Positions 32,270-60,194 of a stretch of DNA of 64,000 bases are shown here, one piece after another. A program made the position numbers and the translations under genes. The DNA is from Chrysemys picta bellii. Taxonomy: Eukaryota > Chordata > Testudines > Emydidae. Numbering within the stretch: position 1 is the stretch's first letter; every line of letters starts with the position of its first letter. The stretch lies in assembly GCF_011386835.1 (NCBI RefSeq), contig NC_088800.1, positions 85,190,981 through 85,254,980 on the forward strand, given 5' to 3'. Under the pieces are notes generated by a model. That model did no database searches. It worked only from the letters and a program-made list of their open reading frames with translations, and was not told the DNA's origin.

Positions 32270-33142
32270 CAGTGGTCTCCAACCCTTTTACGCCCAAGAT
32301 CACTGTTTGAATGTAAGGGCGACCCAGGATCTATCCTGCCCCTTCCCTGAGGCCCTGTCCCACTCACTCCATCCCCCCTTTCTCCATCGCTTGCTCTCCC
32401 CCATCCTCGTTCACTTTCACCAGGCTGGGGCAGGGAGTTGGGTTCGGGAGGGGAGTGCAGGCTCTGGGCTGGGGCAGGGGGGTTCGCAGTGTGGGAGGGG
32501 GCTCTGGGCTGAGCCTGGGGCAAGGGGTTGGGGTGCAGGAGGGGGCTCAGGATTGGGGTAGAGTGTTGGGGTGCAGGAGGGGGTACGGGGTGCTGGCTCC
32601 GGGAGGGGGCTCAAGGCCAGGGCTAGGGGTGCAGGAGGGGCTAAGGGGTGCTGGCCCTGGGAGGGGGCTTAGGGCTGGGGCTTGGGGTGCAGGAGGGGCT
32701 ATGGGGTGCTGGCTCTGGGAGGGGGCTTAGGGCCGGGGCTTGGGGTGCAGGAGGGGCTATGGGGTGCTGGCTCTGGAGGGGGCTCAAGGCCAGGGCTAGG
32801 GGTGCAGGAGGGGCTAAGGGGTGCTGGCCCTGGGAGGGGGCTTAGGGCTGGGGGTGCAGGAGGGGCTATGGGGTGCTGGCTCTGGGAGGGGGCTCAGGGC
32901 TGGGGCTTGGGGTGCAGGAGGGGCTATGGGGTGCTGGCTCTGGGAGGGGGCTCAAGGCCAGGGCTAGGGGTGCAGGAGGGGCTAAGGGGTGCTGGCCCTG
33001 GGAGGGGGCTTAGGGCTGGGGATGCAGGAGGGGCTATGGGGTGCTGGCTCTGGGAGGGGGCTCAGGGCTGGGGATGCAGGAGGGGCTATGGGGTGCTGGC
33101 TCTGGGAGGGGGCTCAGGGCTGGGGCTTGGGGTGCAGGAGTT
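32270..33142. repeat. hAT-like end followed by GC-rich minisatellite
   Basis: CAGTGGTCTCCAACCC at 32270 resembles a hAT-type terminus. From about 32430 to 33142 the sequence becomes a tandem array of roughly 50-60-bp units built from GGGGTGCAGGAGGGGCTATG, GGGTGCTGGCTCTGGGAGGG and GGCTCAGGGCTGGGGCTT, with small variants between units. Open frames across the array are artefacts of a repeat with few stops. The right terminus of the presumed element was not found. Confidence 0.85.
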
Positions 33143-38278: not shown

Positions 38279-41002
38279 CTACCCCCGTTCCCATGGATGC
38301 CCCCGCATCCCTCCAGTTCCTTGGTGAGAATTACACCAGGCCCCTTCCGTTCCACGCCCCCCCTTAGGTCGGGGGTGCTTGATGGCACTCGCAGTTCGCA
38401 TGTGGGAAGGTTTATGCGGCCTGTGCCCTTTTCCCACCCCCATACCTCTGGGGTTCCAACTGGGCTGTGGTCTTCTCCCAGCGCTCCAGTCTGGAGGTCT
38501 GTGCTTTGGGCTCTCTTGGTTTAGAGCCGCCCTTTTAACCTTGGCCACCCTCTGGAAAGGATCCTTTATGCTGGGCAAGGGTCCTAAAGCTCTTTTCCCC
38601 TTGTCCCAGGCCTTCCTCCCCCTCTGACAGGGGTCACAGGATCCGCAGTACTGTCGGACAGTAACAAAGACCCCAGGCCAGTAAAAGCTCCGTAGCAGCC
38701 TCTGCTGGGTACGCCAGGTTCCCTGGTGCCCTGAGAGGGGAATGTCATGGGCCCGGCACAGTAGCTGGCGGCGATACTTCTGGGGTACCACCAGCTGCCT
38801 CCTGATCCCCCCTGACTCCATTTTCCCTGGGGGAGCCCATTCTCGGTACAGGAACCCCTTCTCCCACAGGAACCTTTTCCGGCCACCTCGTTCCATGGTC
38901 TGTACCGCATTGAGGTCGGCCAGGTCCCTTATCTTCCGCAAGGAGGGGTCTCTCTGTAACTCGGCCTGGAACTCAGCAGCTGGGACAGGGATGGCCACCT
39001 GCTCTTTCTCGCCCGCTGGGTCCGAAGCTGCAGCCTCCCTGAGCCGCGTCCCTGGGCGTGCCCTCCCCACCAGGTTAGGGTCCTGCGCCTCAGGCAAGGC
39101 ACCCCCCCCAAGGCCAGGGCGCAGGGCCCCTCGCCGGCTCTGACTGCGGGTCACAACCAGTGCCTTTTGGGGGTTGCTTGGCCAGTTCTCCAGGTCCCCC
39201 CCCATCAATACCTCAGTGGGCAGATACGGGTGTACCCCCACATCCTTGGGGCCCTCCTTGGCCCCCCACTTCAGGTGTACCCTTGCCACGGGCACTTTGA
39301 CTGGTGTTCCGCCCACCCCCGTCAGGGTCAGGTAGGAGTTGGGCACCACCTGATCTGGGGCCACCACCTCGGGCCGGGCCAGCGTCACCTCTGCGCCCGT
39401 ATCCCAGTATCCATTGACCTTCCTCCCATCCACCTCCAGGGGAACAAGGTACTCTCTCCGGAGGGACAGCCCCGCGCCCACCGTATAAACCAAAAACCCT
39501 GAGTCTGGGGCATCCAGCCCCCTAGAGGAGCTGGCCTGGGGCCCTTCTCTCTCTTGAGCAGTTGATAAGCTGCCAGCCCCTCTTGCGTGAGAAGCCTGCC
39601 CCTCGTCCGTCTGGGCCTCTACCAAGTTAACCCTATGCGGGTTCGGTCTGCTCAGTCTGTCCTTGAGCTTGGGGCACTGGGCCCGAACGTGGCCTCTTCG
39701 GCCGCAGTAATAGCAGCTCATGTCCTGTGGGTCCCCTCGAGCCGGTCGGTTGTCCCTGACGCTGGGCATTCCCCGTGGGAGGGGATTCCCCATATTCCCT
39801 CTTTGGGAGGTCCCAGGGTGACTCTCTCTCTGCATCACGGCGGGCCTGTTCCTTTGGGGCTCCTCCCTGCCACCCCCTGACCGGCTCTTTACAAACTCAT
39901 CAGCCAGCTGCCCGGCGTGTCGCGGGTTCCCTGGCTTTCTGTCCACCAACCACAGCCTCAGGTCGGATGGGCACCGCTCATACAGTTGCTCCAGTACCAG
40001 CAGTTTAATCAGGTCCTCCTTCGTCTGGGCCCCACCAGCCCACTTGCTGGCGTATCTTTCCATGCGGACGGCTAGTTGCAGATATGAGATCTCAGGGGTT
40101 TTATCTTGACTCCGGAACCTTCCCCGGTACATCTCAGGAGTCAGCCCAAACTCACGTAGCAGGGCCTTTTTGAATAGTTCGTAGTCCCCTTTCTCTGCCT
40201 CTCCCAGTTGGCGGTACAATGCCACGGATTTGGGGTCCAGTAAGGGGGTAAGGACCCGGAGTCTGTCCGCGGGATCAACCCGGTGCAGCTCGCAGGCCAT
40301 CTCAAAGGCCTCCAGGAAGTCATCCATGTCCTCCCCCTCCTTGTATGGGGCCATGATGCACTTATCAAAGCTCCGTGCAGTCCTGGGTCCCCCCTCACTC
40401 ACCGCAGCCGGGGGTTCGCTGCCCCTCAGTCTCGCCAGTTCCAGTTCATGCTGACGCTGTCTCTCATTCTCCTGTCTCTGTCTCTCTTCATGCTGTCTTT
40501 GTCTCTCTTTCTCCTCCCGTTCATGCTGACGCTGTCTCTCTTCATGCTGTCTCTGTTGTTCACGATCCTCCAGCTCCCTCAGTTTTAGCTCTTTCTCCCA
40601 TTCCAGCCAATTCCGCTCCCCGGATGCCGAACGTTGCCGGGAGGATCCTCTGCTGGCCGGCGGGCTTCGCCGGGGGGACCCCCTGCTGGCCGGGGGGATC
40701 ACGGCGCCTTCGGTATTTGCTGGGCTCCTCCCCACCCTTCCCCTAGGCATAGGAAGGAGGGGTCTCGGGAAGCCCTCAGCAGCCGGCTGACCACTCCCAG
40801 CTGGGACAGACACTGGTGCCTGCGCTGCATTTGCCAGGCTGCTTCCCTGAGACACAGGGATCAGTTCATTCGCGCGATCTTCCGCCTCCAGCTGGGCGAT
40901 GAGCTGTTCTTTGGTGAGCCTCCCAATGCGCAGCCGCCTCTGCTTGCACAGCTCCACCAGGTCGCTCTTAAGCCGCTTGGCATACATCTTCCTGCTGGCC
41001 AC
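38279..41002 (-). CDS. Gag-protease-integrase(zinc finger) polyprotein of LTR retrotransposon, 907 codons
   Basis: A single open frame from ATG at 41002 to a stop at 38279. Visible in order: an N-terminal SAP-like helix pair (residues about 6-42); a highly charged coiled coil of RQHEE-type repeats (about 135-192); capsid, with a SCAN-like segment at about 295-376 containing TKEDLIKLLVLEQLYERCP; a CX2CX4HX4C zinc knuckle (C430, C433, H438, C443); a retropepsin-type protease with D534-T535-G536; and an integrase zinc-binding domain with H752, H759, C789, C792. After about residue 822 the protein leaves family sequence, and the tail to 907 looks like read-through of non-coding 3' sequence. No integrase catalytic core, reverse transcriptase or RNase H is present. 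The frame has no stop or frameshift, consistent with recent insertion. It may still supply Gag particles. Confidence 0.9.
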   Translation of the reverse strand: MASRKMYAKRLKSDLVELCKQRRLRIGRLTKEQLIAQLEAEDRANELIPVSQGSSLANAAQAPVSVPAGSGQPAAEGFPRPLLPMPRGRVGRSPANTEGAVIPPASRGSPRRSPPASRGSSRQRSASGERNWLEWEKELKLRELEDREQQRQHEERQRQHEREEKERQRQHEERQRQENERQRQHELELARLRGSEPPAAVSEGGPRTARSFDKCIMAPYKEGEDMDDFLEAFEMACELHRVDPADRLRVLTPLLDPKSVALYRQLGEAEKGDYELFKKALLREFGLTPEMYRGRFRSQDKTPEISYLQLAVRMERYASKWAGGAQTKEDLIKLLVLEQLYERCPSDLRLWLVDRKPGNPRHAGQLADEFVKSRSGGGREEPQRNRPAVMQRESHPGTSQRGNMGNPLPRGMPSVRDNRPARGDPQDMSCYYCGRRGHVRAQCPKLKDRLSRPNPHRVNLVEAQTDEGQASHARGAGSLSTAQEREGPQASSSRGLDAPDSGFLVYTVGAGLSLRREYLVPLEVDGRKVNGYWDTGAEVTLARPEVVAPDQVVPNSYLTLTGVGGTPVKVPVARVHLKWGAKEGPKDVGVHPYLPTEVLMGGDLENWPSNPQKALVVTRSQSRRGALRPGLGGGALPEAQDPNLVGRARPGTRLREAAASDPAGEKEQVAIPVPAAEFQAELQRDPSLRKIRDLADLNAVQTMERGGRKRFLWEKGFLYREWAPPGKMESGGIRRQLVVPQKYRRQLLCRAHDIPLSGHQGTWRTQQRLLRSFYWPGVFVTVRQYCGSCDPCQRGRKAWDKGKRALGPLPSIKDPFQRVAKVKRAALNQESPKHRPPDWSAGRRPQPSWNPRGMGVGKGHRPHKPSHMRTASAIKHPRPKGGRGTEGAWCNSHQGTGGMRGHPWERG

Positions 41003-46737: not shown

Positions 46738-47316
46738 GTACGTGTCTCCTCGCAGCCCAAGACTTCGCCCAGATAAATTAGCTGCTGCTTGCACTTGCTT
46801 GGGAAAGTTGCATTTACGGTTAAGCTGTGAGGCTACATCAGCTAAACAACGAGCCCCCAGTGCTGAAGGGTGGTGCAGGGGCCAGTCTGTAGTGGGAAGG
46901 AGCCTGCGCGGTGCTGCCTTGGATTGCTTGACTTTCGTTTCTTGTGTTTCTTTCCCCCTCTCTCTCCTCCTTTGCCTCTCCTTGTGCTTTCCCAGCTCCT
47001 TCTCACCCCTCACGCTGCCCTCGCTTTGCCACCTCGCTGCTGTTTTCAGTGCTTTGCAGAATAACCCTCCTCCTGGTATTTTTCCCAGCAAACCCTCCTG
47101 TCCTCCCTGAGTTTCCCCTAAACGCCACGTTCCCCTCAAGAACCCTCTGGCAGGGTCAGGTTACAAAGCCTTTGTCACTTTGCACAGCCGGAGTCAGATG
47201 GGTTTGTTAGAGACTGTGTTGGAGCTGGGCTCTCTTGTACCAGGCAGACAGCAGGAACCCGTGGCCTGTTCTGGGCCACTGATGGGTCTTGTACTGAGAC
47301 GGGTCTTGTCTTGCAG
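46738..47316 (+). other. RAB26 intron
   Basis: Non-coding; pyrimidine-rich (C/T) tract at about 46950-47040. No other feature. Confidence 0.7.
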
Positions 47317-47393
47317 GAGTACGGAGTGCCTTTCATGGAGACCAGCGCGAAAAGCGGCTTGAATGTCGACTTGGCCTTTACAGCCATTGCAAA
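47317..47393 (+). CDS. RAB26: RAB26 coding exon (EYGVPFMETSAKSG...IAK)
   Basis: A 77-nt exon between GTCTTGCAG and GTAAGT, ending after the second base of a lysine codon (AA/G). It encodes the G5 box ETSAKSG, which contacts the guanine base, and the following helix NVDLAFTAIAK. Boundary phase agrees with the next exon. Confidence 0.96.
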
Positions 47394-48067
47394 GTAAGTT
47401 AACTGTCCTACTGCAGCTCTCCTGTTGGAATGCAGTCTGCACCGCTCCCAGATCTCCGCTCCCTTCCCGCACTGCCACAAAACGAGTTCACTGAACGTTA
47501 AACAATGAAACAAAAACTACAGCCTGACATTGCCATGGCATGATCTTAGCGTGCCACGGTACGGCGTGTGTCAGCTCGCTTCACCCTGCCACCAAGACAG
47601 AATCACAGCCCCCATCTTTAAACCAGCCTCTGGGGTTTGTTTCCCTTTTGTATAAGTGTGGGGGGGGGGGGGGGGAGGGGGGAGAGTTCTCAGAAATGGC
47701 CATTTGAAAACCATTGAAGTTGACTCTGAATTCCATTAATTTTTGGTACCAGTTGTATCTAAGGAGCAAGATGAGTTGATTCTAAGGCTCTCTTACGTTG
47801 TCTTGCATCTATAACTCTGATTTAGGACAGCACTTAAACGTGTTTAACTTGATGTCTGAAACATAACTTCCGTGGGACTTTAACCATGTGGTTACGTGCT
47901 TTCCTGAACCACAGCCTACGTACCTAGCCCAGCCCAGCTTAGCCTGAGAACGAGCCAAGGCAGTGCGATGAAGATGGCATTGCTAAAGGCTTTTCCTGCC
48001 TGTGATTTGCTCCCCGGGGGTTCCTTTTACAGGCAAAGCAATAACCTCGCGTCTGTCTCTCCCGCAG
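47394..48067 (+). other. RAB26 last intron with poly-G tract
   Basis: An intron with donor GTAAGT and acceptor CTCTCCCGCAG. At 47660-47682 it holds a run of 16 G, an A, and six more G. Otherwise featureless. Confidence 0.8.
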
Positions 48068-49590: not shown

Positions 49591-52500
49591 ATCAAACCCC
49601 CACCAGCTGCAAGCAGGTTGGGGATTACTTAGCTCATTAAAATCCACCCCCTTGTTCTGTTCAGCTGAACCGAGTTGAGTTGTGATGCTGCATTCCGTCC
49701 ACACCTATAACTTGCTCCTGCCGATGGGAGCGTGGAGTTTGAAAGGAATGCAAGATTCAGGCCCAGCCACTGAAGCAATGATCTCAGGCCTCCGAGAAAG
49801 TCACTTTGCCTCAATGAGCTGCTTTAAAGGTGAGTGCTGTACAAAGACTGGCAACTTTACAAATCTAGATACTCGGTTAAGGGCAGTCTGGTGCATGTTT
49901 AGTAGCGGCAGCAGGGCACAGAAGAGTCATAAAAACAAAAGCTACAACCCTGACCTAGTCCAAACACGGCAATTCTTTTTTTCCTGGAAACTTTTTCTTA
50001 CATTTCCCATTAATTTTTTTCAGTTTTTGTTTAAAAATTGTAAACTTTTTTCTTCAAAACAAAAAAAAAAAATTGTCAAAAAATATTGTGATGAAAATCT
50101 TTGGACAGCTGTACAGTACTGCAACCACTGCCTGCTCTAGATGCTAGTGAAATAACATGATGTGAATCTTGGCCTGAAGAGGGAAGTGCTGATAGATCCC
50201 AGCTCTCTGCTATAAATAACTGACCCCCCCAGGCATGCTATTGGGTAGGACTCAGGGTGCTGTTCTGCCAGTGTTTGCAGGCAATGAAATGCATCATGCG
50301 GACTGCACTTCCTGGCAGTTGTCTCCATGAAGCTAGTGTGCCCTGTAGCAGGGCCCAGTGAAGTGCAACTACTGCCCTGGATTCAACGAACTCATCTGAT
50401 CCCCACTCTCTCCGGCTCATAGCTGTGTCTGATTGCTCCCTGCATGTGGCTTCTGTGATCTGAGTGGACTTTAGAAAAGATGCAAGTGGACAGCATGGTT
50501 CAGCTTGCATGGGTTCAAGCAGTGCAAAGATGGTTTAAGATCTCTCCTAGGAGAAGGTGCTGCCTATTCTCTGGGAAACTATTTTGTGAGTAACTACAGC
50601 ACATACGTTGTTTCCTCACAGGAGGCTACCTTTTACATATAAGCTACTTGCTCTCTGTGTAAAGAGCCCTGTGTTTGCAATAGCCACCCTGTGAGTCACA
50701 CATTAGACCACCTATCCACCCTAAAATTGTCCAATTCATGGCTGGTTTCAGTTTTTGCAAGCTTGTAAGAAGCAGCAGGGGCAGTAGGAGTTGGAGATTG
50801 AGATAATGAGTCTGGACAATGGCATTAGTGTGCACAGGTGAGCTTTGCTGTGCTTCTGTTGCTGCTAACATCAGTAGCTCTGTCCTGCCACCCAGCTGGC
50901 AAATAGTTTTTTTCTTAGCTAGCCAGCCTCATTCCCTCTTATTAGACTGCACTTAACCTCTTTGGGTGAGAAGATTAATGGAGATAAGTGGCACTCCTCA
51001 TTATTGACCCTGCTGCTACTGAGTGTACCAATATTCTGAGTCACTACAGTATTTGCAGAACTCATAGACAGAGGGAGTTGTCTAGGGCTCGAAGAGGACC
51101 CAGCAGAAATATACATGGGGACATTAGAGCATCACTACGATTTGTTTAGGCAGTGACAGTCTGGATCTGGCCTAATGTTGCCTGTGGAGCACTTCCTCTC
51201 TTTGATAAGCAAAGGCCTTCAAGGAGCTTTCTGCTCTTCTCCTTTCCTTGGGTCTGGTGGCTCCATGGGGCACCTAAATAAAATGCTTCCCCCTGCCTAC
51301 CACTGAAAGTATCTAACTTTGTGAAATCACCTATAAACCAGAACTTGTTAATTAGATTCTGCTTTTAACAGAACTGCTTTTCAGGGGTCTAACAGCACCT
51401 GAATATTCTCAGTATTGAGAAGCATATGGGGATCCCCCACTGCAAGACACCAGCCTTATTCATTGTATGGAGAGACCAAACACTGACCACTAATTGCAAA
51501 ATCCTTCTGGAAAGCTCACCAGTATACTGAATACTAAAGTTCTCGCAGATTGCTGCCATTCTCCTAGCAGGGCATTGCTTTGAGCTTTGCTGTCTTTGGT
51601 AAACCTAAAAAAACCCCACCTCCATTCTTTACAATCTGCCAGTAGGAATAGAACTATTTAAAAATCAGATATGTAAGAGAGCAAAAAAATGTTAGTGTCA
51701 CTGCAGTGTGCTTTCCTGCCTTCCTCCCCAACTAAATCCCTCTGGTGTGTAGCAAACATTGTTTTAATAGCAGAAATTAACTAACAACCAGTATCAAATA
51801 ACTGATTTTTTTCTGGTTAAAAGCCTAGACTAAAAAATAAGACTATCCCACTGCACCTGATTCAAGCCCTCTTTCTGCTGCTTGACTTCTGCAGTCTATT
51901 TCTCAAAACTAATCTAGACTCTACTGCAGCACCTCCTGGGATTTGTATGAGTTCTTGGCATCTATTTTTACATGGGCTTTTACTGCCACCAAGCGAGGAA
52001 GAATTATTCAGTACAATCATAAACAAGCCTAAAAACCCTGTGTTGTGTGCACTAACTTGCTGTCACTTGTTTTACAGTTTTTATGTTGTTCCTCTTAATA
52101 AATTTTTTTTAAATGAGCCTCAGTCTTTACAATTGTTTTCAACATTGAGAGCACTCAGCTGAGTAGAAACAAACAAACAAAAAAAAAAAAACACGCTCAG
52201 CTGTTTAGTTACCCCAACCACAAAAAAAAAAAAACCAACCTTCTGTTGCTGTAGGAAACATCTCTTTCTGATCTCTCCCACTAGAGCACTTAAATTGACT
52301 TCACTGCTAAATTGAATTGCAGCAGGGGAGAAAGATCACACCCCTACCCGGGCAGGAAGAGCTTTGCCAAGTAAACTGCATTTCAGATCTCCCCCACTGC
52401 TCTAGGCAGAGTCCAATGTTCATTCTGGTCTTTTTCTGCTTAGAACATCTACACTGTCTACTGCTCTAGGCTAGGCCACTGTAACTTCAGCTTTATGGTA

Positions 52501-53859
52501 GGTATCAAAAAACCCCCATTGGAGTTTTCTGCACAATTCCAAGGCAAGTTAAATCTAAGGTTTAACCCTTCCACTCTTTGGACACACACCTCAACAAGAG
52601 TTAACTGTAGTGAATTTACTATTAAATCCTGCTAGTAACAGACTGATGGACAGTTCAGCTTAACCCTAGTGATGTGAATACAGACTATTCTGTAACAATC
52701 TGCTTTCTCTCCCTCTAGAACCTACATGGTCATACCTTCCAAGGAAGGCTGTGAAAAGCATTGCACCTTACACCATTACTCCCAAACTGCTAGCAGAGCT
52801 TTTATATTGGATGTCCTGTCCTATCCCATGGCTACCATGTTCAGGATACCATCAAATACACACGGACTTAGCATGAGATACTCTTAAATGCAGAATGAAA
52901 ATTTGAGTCCCATACTCAGTATTGAAAATTAAGTGAATATAGCTCAGAGGCCATTCTTAGATTCTCCTTGACTAAGAAGACAGGTTGTTTGGTATTGCCA
53001 CAGATTTGCCATTATCCAGTACAATCCCCCTGCTATTACTGAACTGTTTCCAGTTTTCTCCAGCTGTCTCTTTGCAGCCTAGTTTTTGCCAAATCTCAAG
53101 ACAGCTCTGTCCATTACTGAAGACCAGAGTAGTAAACCAAAGAATTCCTTGTTGCATCAACTATGGTAGAATTAGATTAAACATCTGGCCAAAATGTGTT
53201 CTCTAGCTTTTGTTAATAGGGGTTTTTTTGTTTGGACTAGCTACCAAAGCCCAAGGCCATCTTTGAAAACAGAAGAATTGCTAGTTTTAGCTGTTACTTC
53301 AGGGGAACAGTGTACGGAGATTCACGACAGCTTGATTCTTACTCTACCAGTGCCTAGATGTGTGCTCTAGGCACTTCACTTGTGTTATCCCCATTTAGTC
53401 TTGGAAAACTATAAGTCTCCCCCCACCTCACAAGAATAAGGTGGAGGGTTAGGGTTGTTGAACCTTGGGCCAAAGATACATGCTAGAGAGTAGCATGGAA
53501 TTAAGGATAGTCTTTTCCAGATAAAATGATTATTCTTGCTTCCACACCAATGTTTTAACAGCATATTCCTCTCCTGCTCTTGTACCTCCCCACCAGGCTC
53601 TTTTCCAATAAGCAATACAACTACCAGTGGTAGTCATATCACAAAGGCAAAACTTGAAGTTCCTGTATTATGTTCTATATACTTTATTTGTAAAGATAAA
53701 ACCAAAGAAATGGCCCCTGCCCTTGAAACAGTACTGAGTTTTATGGCAGTTTAGACTAGCACTCCAGAAAACTCCATCTGCACAAACAACCTTCACCCAG
53801 GAGTGAAGACTGACATGTTATGTGAATCAATAGACAAGTCTCATACATTAAAAGAACAG
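49591..53859. other. AT-rich, CpG-poor spacer between RAB26 and the snoRNA host gene
   Basis: No gene, RNA or clear transposon was recognised. CpG dinucleotides are rare (about ten seen from 50600 to 53860), unlike most of the window. It may include an extended RAB26 3' UTR up to about 52120. An A-rich low-complexity block lies at 52175-52235. Confidence 0.5.
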
Positions 53860-54049
53860 CAAATTGTTTCAATTGGTTTAATAACTTACATTTCACTCAT
53901 ACAATATACCTTTCATGTTTCATTCAAAATGCACAGGTCACATGTGCCTTAAAGTAAATCCAAATTAAAGCCTCTGTATTTGAATTAATGAGCTTTACAG
54001 TTGTTTTGATGCCAACAATGGAAGTGAGCTCTTCTGGTCCATTTCATTC
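53860..54049 (-). ncRNA. SNHG19: snoRNA host gene, terminal exon
   Basis: On the minus strand the acceptor CTGTCTGTCTTTGTAG leads into an exon starting at 54049 (GAATGAAATGG). ATTAAA at 53882-53877 is the likely poly(A) signal, so cleavage should fall near 53860. No meaningful coding frame is present, as expected for a snoRNA host transcript. Name by synteny and snoRNA content. Confidence 0.7.
53877..53882 (-). terminator. Poly(A) signal ATTAAA, snoRNA host gene
   Basis: ATTAAA on the minus strand, about 170 nt into the terminal exon. Confidence 0.55.
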
Positions 54050-54195
54050 CTACAAAGACAGACAGCAGCGTTAAACTCCAACCAGTAAATACAAAGTATT
54101 AGGTAGCAAACTGACTCCCCCCAGATTACAAGCTTCTCTATTCCAGTCCTTGTCAGGATTTTCACCCTTACCTAAACAAGTTTTAAAACTACTCT

Positions 54196-54281
54196 GAGCC
54201 TCAGCCAAAAAAGCATAATCAAATACTGCAGGTACAGTTTTCAGACGAGGTGTCAGAAATAAAGTAGCTCATCACTGGCTC
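54196..54281 (-). ncRNA. SNORD60: Box C/D snoRNA, SNORD60-like copy 2
   Basis: Minus strand: a GAGCC/GGCTC terminal stem encloses C box GTGATGA (54275-54269) and D box CTGA (54204-54201). Internally there is a C'-like TTGATTA and a D' CTGA (54244-54241). The guide upstream of D' is complementary to GAGGTGTCAGAAA (reads on the + strand at 54247-54259), a 13-nt match to the conserved domain V segment of 28S rRNA targeted by U60/SNORD60. It would direct 2'-O-methylation of a 28S guanosine. It lies in the host intron between exons ending at 54370 and starting at 54049. Confidence 0.9.
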
Positions 54282-54369
54282 AAGTTTAGGGTTTGGTTTG
54301 CTGGCCCTATTGAAACATGCAGAGTTCATTTTGGCCTCATTTTAACAAGAATCACTGGTGTAGACTCAC

Positions 54370-54402
54370 CTCAACTTGTGTTGACCAGAGGCATCGGGTA
54401 AC
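54370..54402 (-). ncRNA. SNHG19: snoRNA host gene, internal exon (33 nt)
   Basis: Minus strand: a T-rich tract and AAG acceptor (AG at 54404-54403) precede the exon, and GTTGAG/GTGAGT forms its donor (GT at 54369-54368). It separates the two snoRNA-bearing introns. The upstream snoRNA ends 69 nt before this acceptor, the spacing usual for intronic C/D snoRNAs. Confidence 0.75.
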
Positions 54403-54471
54403 CTTAAAAAAAAAACACCACACCACTTAATACATCTCAAAGTAGTCATGATAGTTACAAGTACAACATGC

Positions 54472-54553
54472 AGCCTCAGGCATGAAGCGTAATCAAGTAC
54501 TGCTTGGGCAATACTCATACGAGGTGTCAGAAATTGAAAGCTCATCACAGGCT
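54472..54553 (-). ncRNA. SNORD60: Box C/D snoRNA, SNORD60-like copy 1
   Basis: Minus strand: stem AGCC/GGCT, C box GTGATGA (54548-54542), D box CTGA (54479-54476), C'-like TTGATTA, and D' ATGA (54518-54515). The guide block is the same as in copy 2: the + strand reads GAGGTGTCAGAAA at 54521-54533, the expected 28S target. Outside the boxes and guide the two copies differ clearly, so duplication is not recent. The CGTATGA context matches mammalian SNORD60 as remembered, making this the closer ortholog. Confidence 0.92.
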
Positions 54554-55286
54554 ACCCTCGGCAGGACACATCCTGCAATGGTTAATGCGACAATCTCCAC
54601 AACAGCAGCTTGTCCGACCTCTAACTGGGGCAAGAGGTTCCTCAGTAACGGACCCCAAGGTTAAGTTTACGGTAGAAAAAAAACAGGTGCATTAAAACTA
54701 TGATGGCCAACAAGTTTGAAACAGAACGCAGGACGGCCTTGACGCATTAGCTGGCCCTGCAGGTTAGGACTTGGCATGGGGGGGATGAGAGTCCCAGTTT
54801 ACACAGACACACTTGCACTAAGCTGCATCTACATGAGCAGAGGATTCAAGCCCTGCCCTCAGCACCCAGTGTAGCCCCACCCCGCTGGCCCGTGAGAAAC
54901 GCCCCCCTGCCCTGCTCACACCAGGAATCAGCCTCACTCCCAAGGCAGGAGGCGTTGAACACGTGCCAGGCGGGGGAGGGGGTCTGGGTTCCGTGGCCAC
55001 GCCCAGCTAACACGGGTTACAGCCGCCCCCGGCCCGTCCACACTAGAGCTGGTGAGCGTGTTAGCGGCCTCGTGTCCAACCCCTCCCCCACAGGGAGCCC
55101 GCAGCGCGGGGGGGCTTGGCCGCGCGCAGGCACACACCGGGCCCCGGACTCCTGGGTTCCGGCCCCTCTCACCAGGGGGCGTCCCTCGGGCCCGGGGCTG
55201 CTCCCCTCCCCACCCCACCCCACCCCCCTCTCCCGGCGGCAGACTGGGCCCTCACGCGCCTCAGCGCGTCAACGAACCACCCTCAC

Positions 55287-55311
55287 CTCAGCCAGCTCGG
55301 TGCGGAGAGAG
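55287..55311 (-). ncRNA. SNHG19: snoRNA host gene, first exon with 5'TOP-like start
   Basis: Predicted start at C55311: the transcript would begin CTCTCTCCGC, a 5' terminal oligopyrimidine tract typical of snoRNA host and ribosomal protein genes, 29 nt from the first base of a TATA box. The exon ends GCTGAG before donor GTGAGG (GT at 55286-55285), giving only 25 nt. Start by sequence logic, not data. An extra exon between 54560 and 55280 cannot be excluded. Confidence 0.65.
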
Positions 55312-55332
55312 TATGCCCGCCCCCTACCGCGA

Positions 55333-55340
55333 CTTTTATA
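55333..55340 (-). promoter_or_regulatory. TATA box of snoRNA host gene
   Basis: TATAAAAG on the minus strand, about 30 bp before the pyrimidine-rich start at 55311. Confidence 0.8.
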
Positions 55341-55360
55341 GCCGCCGCCGCCGGGCCGCC

Positions 55361-55365
55361 ATTGG
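55361..55365 (-). promoter_or_regulatory. CCAAT box
   Basis: ATTGG on the + strand (CCAAT on minus) within GCCATTGGGC. First of five CCAAT-type sites between the two divergent starts; likely NF-Y binding. Confidence 0.6.
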
Positions 55366-55436
55366 GCAGGCTCCCTCCTCACGCACAGCCAGTCACAAAT
55401 CCTCTTTTCGGTAAAGCCCCGCCTCCTCCGGCTCTC

Positions 55437-55441
55437 ATTGG
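55437..55441 (-). promoter_or_regulatory. CCAAT box
   Basis: ATTGG within CTCATTGGTAG, 76 bp from the previous one. Confidence 0.6.
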
Positions 55442-55494
55442 TAGCTGCTCCCCCCACGCACCAGTCCTACGAGAGACTCGTCTTTAGCCGCGCG

Positions 55495-55499
55495 ATTGG
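55495..55499 (-). promoter_or_regulatory. CCAAT box
   Basis: ATTGG within CGCGATTGGCCAG. Confidence 0.6.
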
Positions 55500-55528
55500 C
55501 CAGCAGGTGTGAAGAACGGACCGAGTGG

Positions 55529-55533
55529 CCAAT
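55529..55533 (+). promoter_or_regulatory. CCAAT box
   Basis: CCAAT within GTGGCCAATAATG. The orientation switches to the + strand here. Confidence 0.6.
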
Positions 55534-55571
55534 AATGACATAGATTGCAGCATAGAATGAGCAGAGGAGCA

Positions 55572-55576
55572 CCAAT
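55572..55576 (+). promoter_or_regulatory. CCAAT box
   Basis: CCAAT within GCACCAATCAGGG, the fullest NF-Y-like context of the set. Confidence 0.65.
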
Positions 55577-55595
55577 CAGGGAAAGGCGGCCTAGG

Positions 55596-55614
55596 GCTGC
55601 TGGGATTTGTAGTC
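55596..55614 (-). promoter_or_regulatory. ACTACAA-type (ZNF143/THAP11-like) motif
   Basis: On the minus strand GACTACAAATCCCAGCAGC closely follows the vertebrate promoter motif ACTACAATTCCCAGC. It pairs with an inverted copy at 55674-55690. Confidence 0.75.
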
Positions 55615-55673
55615 CATACGACGCGGGGTTCTCTGTACAGCCGAATGCCAGGGGGCGGGGGGCTGGCGATGAG

Positions 55674-55690
55674 GGACTACAACTCCCAAG
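55674..55690 (+). promoter_or_regulatory. ACTACAA-type (ZNF143/THAP11-like) motif
   Basis: GGACTACAACTCCCAAG on the + strand, in inverted orientation to the motif at 55596-55614 and close to the expected start of the + strand gene. Confidence 0.7.
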
Positions 55691-55816
55691 GAGCCCTGGG
55701 ACCTGCGCTTCCGGCCTGGCTAGACAGGCCCAGCAAGCACCGGGGTAGCAGCTGGAGGGGCAGGAGATCACTATGGGCCGGTACCGGCCAGCCGCGGTCC
55801 GGCCGCCGCCGAGGAG
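55690..55816 (+). other. TRAF7: First exon of divergent gene, probably TRAF7
   Basis: CpG-island sequence ending GCCGAGGAG at 55816 with a perfect donor GTGAGT at 55817. The 5' edge is a guess from the promoter motifs. An ATG at 55773 opens a short frame (MGRYRPAAVRPPPRR) that would stay open into a following exon. TRAF7, an E3 ligase with RING, TRAF-type zinc finger and WD40 repeats, is named only because it is the divergent neighbour of SNHG19/SNORD60 next to RAB26 in other amniotes. Its known protein start lies in a later exon, which was not seen by 64000. Confidence 0.6.
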
Positions 55817-56004
55817 GTGAGTGCGGGGACGGGTGCGGGTCCCGGCCCTGTGGCTGGGGAGCCCATGGGTGAGGGCCGGGGGATGGGGGGAGGGGCAGTG
55901 GGGGCTGGATCACGAGGGGGAGGGGCATGGGGGAGGCATCTAGGGGTAAAGGATCTGTGTCGGGGGGGGGGGCTCTGTGGGGAGATCCGGGGAGGGGCTG
56001 TGGG

Positions 56005-56400
56005 GCAGGTTGCAGGTGAGGAGAATGGGGATGGGAGCTGTCGGGGGAGGGGGGAAAGTGTGGGGAGGGGGCTATGTGTGTCGGGGGGGCTCTGTGGGGA
56101 GACCCGGGGAGGGGCTGTGGGGCAGGTTGCAGGTGAGGAGAATGGGGATGGGAGCTGTCGGGGGTGGGGGGAGGCTGTGGGGAGGGGGCTATGTGTGTCA
56201 GGGGGGGCTCTGTGGGGAGACCTGGGGAGAGGCTGTGGGGCAGGTTGCAGGTGAGGAGAATGGGGATGGGAGCTGTCGGGGGAGGGGGGAAAGTGTGGGG
56301 AGGGGGCTGTGTGTGTCGGGGGGGCTGTGGGGCAGGCTGCAGGTGAGGAGAATGGGGATGGGAGCTGTGGCGGGAGGCTGTGGCTGGTTGTGTGACAGGG
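56005..56400 (+). repeat. G-rich minisatellite just inside intron 1
   Basis: The segment GCAGGTTGCAGGTGAGGAGA (one base change, GCAGGCTGC, in the last copy) starts at 56005, 56122, 56240 and 56332, giving periods of 117, 118 and 92 bp. Units contain long G-runs. A partial earlier unit starts near 55860. Open frames across it are by-products of the repeat. Confidence 0.92.
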
Positions 56401-57200
56401 GCACTGGTGTGATCTGTTCCCAGCACTGCAACGGGGGCGCAGTTTGATCTCCCCTGCACGGGGGCGGCCGGGCTTGCTGCTCGGTGCAAGGTCTGCTGCG
56501 GGAGCTCATGGAAGAAGCTCAGCACCTCAAGGGTTAAGAGGCTGTTGGCCTCTATGCACGGGGTTTACACCGTGAGGTCAATGTGGGTTGCTGCACTCCT
56601 ATTAGTTAGCCTTGCCTGGGAATGACAAGCGTGACACATTATTGCAACAGCTGTTCTATGCTGCACCTGTGTTTAGTTAACTGGTTGACAGCTGTGTGGA
56701 GGTGCTGAGAGCTGCAGTTGGCCACTAGATAAAGCTATGCACGCGGCTTTCTTGATTGTTGTTTCCTTGTCTTTTATTAAAAGTTAAATAATTTGTTAAA
56801 TCCCAATGGGGGGTTGTGACTGTCCAGCGCACAGTAGAGCCAGGTCTCCTTATGGGACATAGTCTTGGCTGCCTCTCGCTCTCCATATCTCTTATCTCAA
56901 TACCTTCTCTCTGCTAGGTGTTATTTTATGTACTTCTTTATCATACGGTGCATTTCAAATCTATATTGGCTAGTTGTGTTGCATGTCCTACCCGGGGCAT
57001 ATGCTGCTGCTTGTCCTCTATTTCTCTTGATCAACTTAATAACCACATTTCCTCCAGGTTTGTGTCCTTCGCTTTCCCATTACTTGCCTCTCAATGTGCA
57101 TTTAGTAGTAAGATTCTGCAATTGCCTCAAGGATATTTTGGTTACAGAGCTTCCTCTTTGGGGCAGAGTAGAAAATTGCTCTTTGAATCTTTCATCTCAG

Positions 57201-57334
57201 ATTTCAGAGTAGAAGCCGTGTTAGTCTGTATCCGCAAAAAGAACAGGAGTACTTGTGGCACCTTAGAGACTAACAAATTTATTAGAGCATAAGCTTTCGT
57301 GGGCTACAACCCACTTCTTCGGATGCATATAGAA
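57201..57334 (+). repeat. SINE-like interspersed repeat
   Basis: It contains GCCGTGTTAGTCTGTATCCG, GGCACCTTAGAGACTAACAA, AGCATAAGCTTTCGTGGGCT and CACTTCTTCGGATGCAT. This is a very common phrase set in turtle genomes and the same family as the foldback at 11505-11695. Confidence 0.8.
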
Positions 57335-60194
57335 TGGAACATTCTCAGATTGGCTCTTCAGTTCAGCTTGATTTTCATGCCAACCTCTAGCTGCCGCCCA
57401 TGTGACCAGAGCCACTTTTTCCTACTTGATCAGATTTCAGCCCACTGATCTTTTTTGTTCTGTGGAGCTGTGAAGCGTGGGCTCTCTTTCAATTCAGCTT
57501 GCCTTCATGCTGGGATCCCATTGTAAGCCACTAATCAGGAACCTGTCTGCTGATAGACATGAAAGGAAAGATCACTGTAGACAACAGCTTTTGATGCACA
57601 TGTAACAAATAAGGAGCAGGTTACTGTGTTCTCCCTGTGGAGATTAACTACGCTGCAAAGAACTCCTGTGTGGCATTCATGTATTTTCTGAACTTTGAAC
57701 ATGCTACCAAATCATTCCTTTCTGCTCTGGTAATTTCAGTTTTTCTCCTTAAAGTCCCTGTGCAATTTCAGTTCACCTCTGACCTAACCTGATTAGCATT
57801 GGTGGTAAGTCCCTGTCATGTTTCAGCATAGAATGGCGGCTGGGTGAGCAATCTCTGAGAAGCGCTGGAGTATCGTTTGGTTACATTTGCGACGTGCTCC
57901 GGGACGGAAGGGCTGTGTAAGTGGGTGAGGGCCAGACTGTGCCCTGGTTACCCTCGCTGTGCAGAATGGGGGCAGGCAGGTCAGCCATCTCCAGGGCAGC
58001 ATCCCTACCCGCTTCTCTGGACGAGCCTCTGTCTGAGGGAAGTGGGCAGGGGGACTGTGCATTGCCCTTCTTCCCCTCCCCACTGGCTCTGGAGAGTTTC
58101 CCACTGACACTAGCTGAGGACTGAGTTGTGTTGCCAGGTAATGGTGAGGGGGCACACAAGACCTCCATGCCCATAGACCAGTGTCCCTGCAGGGTCCTTG
58201 CTTCATTCTGCAATTTCTCCCCAGCAGAAGAATGCAGAGAGATTCTCTTGGCGTTTCCTGGCCCCCTATGGGTATTACTGCCCGGAAGCACAGCTGTGCC
58301 AAAATCTCTCTCACGCATCAGGTGAGATGAAGGAACGGAAATATGTGTGAACTACTTGCCTTTCTGTGCATGTATGCCCAAGTAGGCTAGGAATTGATTT
58401 GTATCCAAATGTATGACAATGAATATTTATATACATTTACATACATAACTGCATAGGGTTGTTCAGTTGGCATGGGGATTTTAAATAATTCTTGGGTATA
58501 GAGATCTACCTGCCATGGGGAGTGGGGGGGTTCACAGGGCAATTTTCTGAATAAGGATAAAAAATGCATATAAAAATAAAACCTGTCCATGGCCTGATTG
58601 ATGTCCATTGAAGTCAATGGAGACCCTCCTGTTTACTACAATGGGCTTTGGTTCAGACACTGGATGTGCCTGCAGTAGGCCTGCTGAAGTGTGTATGTGG
58701 GAACAGGAGTGACTATCTGGTAAATCGTCTGTAAAACCTGTCGATCTGCCATAGGCCGCACTCCTCACAGAGGAAAACCATTCTGGACCTAGCAGCTATT
58801 GCAATGTCTGAAATAGCATGAGCCACTGGCCCCCATCGAAGGGTCCATGTTGATTTCAACTGGTGCTGCGGGATCTTGACGCCTCTGAAAACGTTGCCAC
58901 TTGGTTAGTTGCCGTAATGTCGATTTCGGGCCTAACTTTCCACACCCAAGTTTGAAGATTTTGATCCCAAGCTCTCTGGGAAAAGCTGAATGGAGCTAAT
59001 CAAACATTTGTGACGTATGGCTGGAAGGGTTACCCAGGAATATAGACGGCTGGGCTGTGGGTACTTTGTTGACATGCTCCTGATGCTGCTCATAGCAGAG
59101 AGAGCTGAGAAATGATGCTGGTTCCCGGCAGGGCCTTATGGGATTCTGCAGGGAATCGAGGACGTGTGGGTTGCAAGACATTGCTTCCTGCACCAGGTCT
59201 ACCTGACATAACTTCTGCACTGGTCAGCACTTGTCACTTACAAGTTTCAGTTTAAATCCCATGCCCAGAAACCTCTTTTGCGTATGTGTTGCTCGCCCGT
59301 TTGTCCAGCCTTGGCACTCTCCCCGTCCGAGGCAGATGAACGGCTCAGGAATGTAGGGGCAGCGGAACCTAGCCAAAGCATGAAGGGCTCACTGATGTAG
59401 GTGTCAGCAACTGGGACAAGCTTGAATGTTTAAAAATAAATTCAGCTCCAAGTTCCTCCATTGTCAATATAATTGCTGTTTAAAATCCACCCTTAGCAAA
59501 TCGCAACAGAGGGTTCCTTCATCCACGCTGGGAGTTTTGTTCCCATTAGTTAGCGTTCGTGCAGCTCTTGGAACATGCCAAGGTTGCTATTCTGCGAGCT
59601 GCCAGGACTATCAGAAACCTGGATACACTTCCTTTAAATAGGAGATTGCAGCCGCATACAGTAACTTGCTAAAGAATCTCTTTCTGTTACAGGTTCCTCC
59701 CTGGGCCTTCATCTGCCTAGTTTGTCCCCAGCAGGAATTCTGTGGGGTTTTGGAGCAGACTGTGGCTCTCCGTGACAGTCAGGGGATGGGGGGGGGGCAG
59801 CAGGGGGAGGAGGAACATCTCACACCTTTGGAGTTCTGCGGAAGGGAGGCAAAAGGTTCCTTGCAGCCAAGGCTCACTGGGCCCAGTCTTAAGGACTCCA
59901 CATGGCCGGAGTCCGAGTCCAGACACTCTTAGTCCCCGCCCCAGAAAAGGAGTTTGCTCCATTGTAGCCCAGCCCTGTTCTGCTCAGTAACAATCCCTAC
60001 CGTGAAGGCAAAGATCTGGGCAGAGCGGGATTAACCCTTTCCTTACCAATCCATCCCATTACATGTGTTTAACCTATCTGTAGCTATACCGTTGCTCATC
60101 ATTGGAGAAGCACTGAGCTGAGTGCATGGTGCAGTCAGCCCTTTGGCACACATTCAGCAGTTACCACTTAAAGAAATCCGCAGTTATTATTATT

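What the first reader, a model, noticed from the sequence alone, without database searches (positions are those of the whole stretch)
54196..54553. Two tandem SNORD60-type snoRNAs with the same 28S guide
Two box C/D snoRNAs sit in successive introns on the minus strand. Boxes C and D, terminal stems and a shared 13-nt guide complementary to GAGGTGTCAGAAA are all intact, while the rest has diverged. Selection has kept both guides on one 28S site. In mammals a single SNORD60 is the usual picture as I recall it. The D' boxes differ (ATGA in copy 1, CTGA in copy 2), which may tune efficiency or the second guide region.
Basis: partly seen in the sequence, partly recalled or inferred. Interest (0 to 1): 0.78.

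Follow-up and report, generated by a model that had tools for sequence, protein, structure and literature searches.

The report
Twin SNORD60 snoRNAs in one host
This animal carries two copies of a well-known ribosome-modification guide RNA in neighbouring predicted introns of one non-coding gene, where humans have one; it is a real but ordinary kind of gene duplication.

Summary
Confirmed, and mostly ordinary. Both copies match Rfam SNORD60 full length: 73.2 bits (54280-54196, copy B) and 69.8 bits (54553-54471, copy A), cut-off 42. They are the only SNORD60 hits reported in the 2.37 Gb assembly. They lie in two predicted introns of a short gene between RAB26 and TRAF7, the place of human SNHG19, which has two exons and one SNORD60 (passages). 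Chicken was catalogued with one copy. The 13-nt D' guide is identical in both and pairs perfectly with eukaryotic LSU rRNA. Boxes, guide and stems are 45 of 47 identical, the rest of the body 20 of 37, and the flanks 9 of 37, so the duplication looks old with working parts kept. The stretch before box D shows no convincing rRNA match. The D' difference is real; its effect is untested. Duplication of C/D snoRNAs within one host gene is a documented, common mode (passages). Expression and the species range of the second copy could not be tested.

The parts
54471..54553 (-). SNORD60 copy A (upstream in transcription), in predicted intron 1; D' box ATGA, box D CTGA ending at 54476
   Evidence: Rfam RF00271, 69.8 bits, full length; boxes and coordinates by script
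54196..54280 (-). SNORD60 copy B (downstream), in predicted intron 2; D' box CTGA, box D CTGA ending at 54201
   Evidence: Rfam RF00271, 73.2 bits, full length; boxes and coordinates by script
54521..54533 (-). 13-nt guide TTTCTGACACCTC of copy A
   Evidence: exact match starting at 54533; 13 Watson-Crick pairs with eukaryotic LSU rRNA
54247..54259 (-). 13-nt guide TTTCTGACACCTC of copy B
   Evidence: exact match starting at 54259; 13 Watson-Crick pairs with eukaryotic LSU rRNA
55334..55340 (-). TATAAAA, a possible TATA box of the host gene, about 29 nt before a pyrimidine-rich start
   Evidence: sequence; function inferred
55287..55312 (-). predicted host exon 1, starting with a TOP-like pyrimidine tract (ACTCTCTCC) and ending GAG|gtgagg
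   Evidence: second-best 5' splice site of the scanned stretch, 10.2; start inferred
54370..54402 (-). predicted 33-nt host exon 2 separating the two snoRNA introns
   Evidence: best 5' site (54369, 11.3) and second-best 3' site (54402, 4.5) of the scanned stretch
53860..54049 (-). predicted host exon 3; ATTAAA possible poly(A) signal at 53882; 3' end not determined, 53860 is only the end of the stretch that I printed
   Evidence: best 3' splice site of the scanned stretch, 5.1; signal position

Best explanation
Its single SNORD60 intron unit was duplicated in cis, giving three exons and two introns with one SNORD60 each. Shown by sequence: two intact box C/D RNAs, identical guides, host position, predicted splice sites. 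Inferred: the host is transcribed from its TATA/TOP-type promoter, the introns are spliced out and debranched, and exonucleases trim each to an 83-85 nt snoRNP core. Both RNPs then 2'-O-methylate the same G of 28S rRNA, the third base of GAGGUGUC, paired five nucleotides before D' (the D'+5 rule is recalled). The extra copy most likely adds dose or redundancy rather than a new target. Copy A has the family-consensus D' (AUGA) and lies 73 nt from its 3' splice site; copy B has the canonical D' CUGA but lies 151 nt away. The confidence given covers identity, host and duplication; that both copies are active is less sure.
For: Full-length Rfam hits for both, the only two reported in the assembly. 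Guide with 13 Watson-Crick pairs to LSU rRNA. Motif 45 of 47 identical versus 20 of 37 elsewhere and 9 of 37 in flanks. The two best 3' and two best 5' splice sites of 53800-55330 bound the two introns. A RAB26 exon lies on the + strand on the host's 3' side and TRAF7 exons lie on the + strand beyond the window on its 5' side, the neighbours named for human SHG60/SNHG19 (passages). Ten alignment columns, two of them insertions, are shared by A and B against the Rfam consensus, versus 7 unique to B and 9 unique to A, fitting a duplication inside the lineage.
Against: No RNA data, so neither copy is shown to be expressed. A third 5' splice site inside intron 2 (54171, score 9.9) is close behind the chosen 10.2 and 11.3, so the exon layout is a prediction. 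Copy B's distance from its 3' splice site is longer than the roughly 65-85 nt that I recall as favourable for C/D processing. The 28S of this species was not obtained (14 busy answers), so the target was tested on rDNA of other eukaryotes, fetched by the target motif itself. The 16-nt run alone is not beyond chance given overall similarity. One human study finds only a minimal effect of SNORD60 on 28S maturation and a minor one on translation (passages of PMC13369958), so dose may matter little.
Confidence: 0.85

Rival explanations
1. Only one copy is the working SNORD60; the other is a silent or barely expressed paralogue that has not yet decayed. (Same identity and duplication; differs in the activity step.)
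For: Most vertebrates studied, chicken excepted, have fewer predicted expressed than non-expressed snoRNAs, and over 87% of 211 non-expressed human snoRNAs with a canonical rRNA target have another copy (passages of PMC10234308). Copy B lies 151 nt from its 3' splice site.
Against: Both copies keep box C, box D, the stem and the guide, while non-motif positions have fallen to 20 of 37 and flanks to 9 of 37 identity; a long-silent copy should have lost motif bases too.
Confidence: 0.2
2. The two copies have split or gained targets: one has a second guide before box D or a non-rRNA target.
For: The C'-D stretches differ (CGCTTCATGC versus TGCTTTTTTGG). A 2026 paper reports an mRNA target for human SNORD60 (passages of PMC13369958). 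Copy B's stretch had a 9-nt Watson-Crick match in one locus, L006, reached by 12 of 60 shuffles.
Against: In the other five guide-locus tests 39 to 59 of 60 shuffles reached the observed Watson-Crick run; the D' guides are identical. Only rDNA of other eukaryotes was tested, no snRNA or mRNA.
Confidence: 0.07
3. Two copies are the ancestral vertebrate or amniote state, and mammals and chicken lost one. (Differs from the best explanation only in timing.)
For: The copies are well diverged and the flanks no longer align, so the duplication looks old; the chicken listing depends on one program and an early assembly ('early' is recalled).
Against: A and B share 10 states against the Rfam consensus, but the make-up of that consensus was not seen, so this is weak.
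Confidence: 0.25

Closest known systems
Human SNORD60 in SNHG19 (SHG60)
   Same: Same Rfam snoRNA family, predicted target G4340 of 28S (passages), host between TRAF7 and RAB26 (PMC3499365 passages); non-coding host
   Different: Human host has two exons and one intron (170 nt) with one SNORD60 (passages); here three predicted exons, two introns (884 and 320 nt) and two copies
Chicken GGgCD63 (U60 homologue)
   Same: D'-side guide to the corresponding 28S G (28S-G3825, 14 nt, 5' guide; Table 1 passage of PMC2653536)
   Different: Listed with one isoform; recorded there as running opposite to its predicted host
C/D snoRNA families duplicated within one host gene, such as SNORD58 in RPL17 or SNORD50A/B
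   Same: Paralogues of one C/D family in one host; [quoted passage not shown]
   Different: Different families. A SNORD60 pair was not seen in the listings nor in the passages read; most listed papers were not opened, and searches list only part of their hits

Membership tests
SNORD60 (RF00271) | Covariance-model score over the gathering cut-off, full length | tested here: met
   73.2 and 69.8 bits against 42, positions 1-83 of 83
SNORD60 (RF00271) | Box C RUGAUGA and box D CUGA with a closing terminal stem | tested here: met
   GTGATGA, CTGA, AGCC/GGCT in both. The minimum-energy fold closes this stem in copy A; in copy B the 85-nt fold pairs AGCC elsewhere and only the extended 97-nt fold closes it
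SNORD60 (RF00271) | D' guide complementary to LSU rRNA GAGGUGUCAGAAA | tested here: met
   13 Watson-Crick pairs in LSU rRNA of other eukaryotes; the loci were fetched by that motif, so their agreement is by construction; own 28S not obtained
SNORD60 (RF00271) | Directs 2'-O-methylation of the 28S G | not testable with these tools
   needs RiboMeth-seq
SNHG19-type host gene | Lies between RAB26 and TRAF7, on the opposite strand to both | tested here: met
   RAB26 exon, + strand, 47308-47394; TRAF7 exons, + strand, from 7.6 kb beyond the window (with a recalled human protein as query)
SNHG19-type host gene | Transcribed, spliced and non-coding | tested here: inconclusive
   splice sites predicted and the joined prediction has no long open frame; no RNA data
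SNHG19-type host gene | Two exons and one SNORD60 intron, as in human | tested here: not met
   three predicted exons, two SNORD60 introns; human layout from passages

The most novel reading that the evidence does not exclude
A lineage-specific SNORD60 pair in which the copies are tuned differently (AUGA D' with near-ideal intron spacing against CUGA D' with long spacing), so that methylation of one G in a conserved 28S segment is set by two separately regulated RNAs.
Probability: 0.1. Interest if true: 0.4.

Novelty: new member of a known kind. Interest (0 to 1): 0.17.

Why it matters
It documents a second SNORD60 and an extra predicted exon in the SNHG19 orthologue of a vertebrate other than human, useful for annotation and for dating snoRNA copy changes. 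It is a clean natural pair for asking whether D' sequence or intron spacing sets snoRNA output. It does not change any general view.

Tried and rejected
Second guide before box D: not supported on three rDNA loci (60 shuffles for each of two guides and three loci; best case 12 of 60 shuffles reach the observed run). Long identical run as proof of selection: rejected as a stand-alone argument. Further SNORD60 copies: none reported in the assembly (59 of 237,731 first-look candidates were scored, so a degenerate copy could be missed). More snoRNAs in the host: none over a cut-off in the window or in 50000-60000. TRAF7 in the window: only matches with E of 4.9 or worse, found beyond its end. Paper searches for a known SNORD60 pair: searches gave listings without one (25 of 45, 20 of 81 and 15 of 4,167 papers listed; none of the 15 holds the word SNORD60), and searches gave no paper. 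Most listed papers were not opened. The avian ncRNA paper, which included turtle and alligator, does not name SNORD60 in its main text; supplements were not read for any paper. Fold energies are unremarkable (z -0.9 to -2.0), as is usual for C/D RNAs (recalled).

Full report
Observation. Rfam's SNORD60 model finds both copies full length, at 73.2 bits (54280-54196, here copy B) and 69.8 bits (54553-54471, copy A), against a gathering score of 42. These are the only two matches in the window at gathering scores. A looser scan of 50000-60000 listed 8 matches, of which only these two passed their cut-off. In the whole assembly (2.37 Gb in 9,732 contigs) these two are the only matches reported, with 59 of 237,731 first-look candidates scored.

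Anatomy. Both copies carry GTGATGA, CTGA, AGCC/GGCT stem letters and the guide TTTCTGACACCTC. D' is ATGA in A and CTGA in B. The Rfam consensus has AUGA there, so B is the odd one, and its D' equals the canonical box D. Overall 65 of 84 alignment columns are identical: 45 of 47 in the motif set that I chose (by subtraction), 20 of 37 elsewhere in the body, and 9 of 37 in the flanks. Fisher p is 8e-6 for motif against the rest and 0.017 for the rest against flanks. The 16-nt identical block alone is matched by about one in five column shuffles, so selection on the working parts is inferred from the contrast, not from the run. Copy A equals the Rfam consensus at 62 of 83 positions and copy B at 64 of 83. 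In an 85-column alignment with the consensus, 55 columns agree in all three, 10 (two of them insertions) are shared by A and B against the consensus, 7 are unique to B, 9 unique to A, and 4 differ in all three. This leans towards a duplication within this lineage, but the species behind the consensus were not seen. The minimum-energy fold closes the terminal stem in copy A, and in copy B only when flanking bases are included.

Host gene. On the minus strand TATAAAA at 55340 lies about 29 nt before a pyrimidine-rich start. With recalled splice-site frequencies, the two best 5' sites (54369, 11.3; 55286, 10.2) and the two best 3' sites (54049, 5.1; 54402, 4.5) define three exons and introns of 884 and 320 nt, each with one snoRNA. 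The next 5' site (54171, 9.9) is close behind; the next 3' site scores 2.0. Box D ends 73 nt (A) and 151 nt (B) before the 3' splice site. The neighbours are a RAB26 exon at 47308-47394 on the + strand (Rab-26 was the one PDB match at E <= 0.001) and TRAF7 exons on the + strand from 7.6 kb beyond the window. Passages of PMC3499365 and PMC11788927 describe human SHG60/SNHG19 with two exons and one intron that yields SNORD60; the first places it between TRAF7 and RAB26. Passages of PMC2653536 list the chicken U60 homologue with one isoform, guiding 28S-G3825 by a 14-nt D'-side element.

Target. The own 28S could not be fetched: the genome search was busy for 14 identical requests. A pattern scan of genome contigs gave four records, and in each the motif lies inside a stretch that Rfam calls eukaryotic LSU rRNA. 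The guide pairs with GAGGTGTCAGAAA through 13 Watson-Crick pairs in the four, 14 in one of them. The records were chosen by that motif, so the agreement is by construction; what is shown is that the motif lies in eukaryotic LSU rRNA. The fifth nucleotide before D' pairs with the third base, a G, in line with a predicted G target (G4340 of human 28S, passages of PMC13369958); the numbering itself was not checked. The same passages report a minimal effect of human SNORD60 on 28S maturation. The stretches before box D match three rDNA loci no better than most shuffled versions: 39 to 59 of 60 shuffles reach the observed Watson-Crick run in five of six tests, and 12 of 60 in the sixth. No second guide is supported.

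Interpretation. This is most likely an old cis-duplication of one C/D snoRNA intron unit in the SNHG19 orthologue, giving dose or redundancy. Expression, methylation and the spread of the second copy among vertebrates remain open: no collection of vertebrate genomes was at hand.

Noticed in passing
window 55966-56326: G-rich tandem array, unit 117 nt, 3.1 copies, 94% matches, just inside what may be TRAF7 intron 1.
   Followed up: no
window 32566-33140: G-rich minisatellite, unit 58 nt, 10.2 copies.
   Followed up: no
window 38279-41002 minus: 907-codon stop-to-stop frame that by eye resembles a retroelement with a zinc knuckle (not searched).
   Followed up: no
window 55780-55820 plus: A possible TRAF7 first exon ends GAGGAG|gtgagt about 0.5 kb from the host gene's inferred start on the other strand, a head-to-head arrangement (exon not confirmed).
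   Followed up: partly
L005-L008: Four bacterial-labelled metagenome-assembled records in the genome collection carry eukaryotic rDNA, so they look misbinned.
   Followed up: partly
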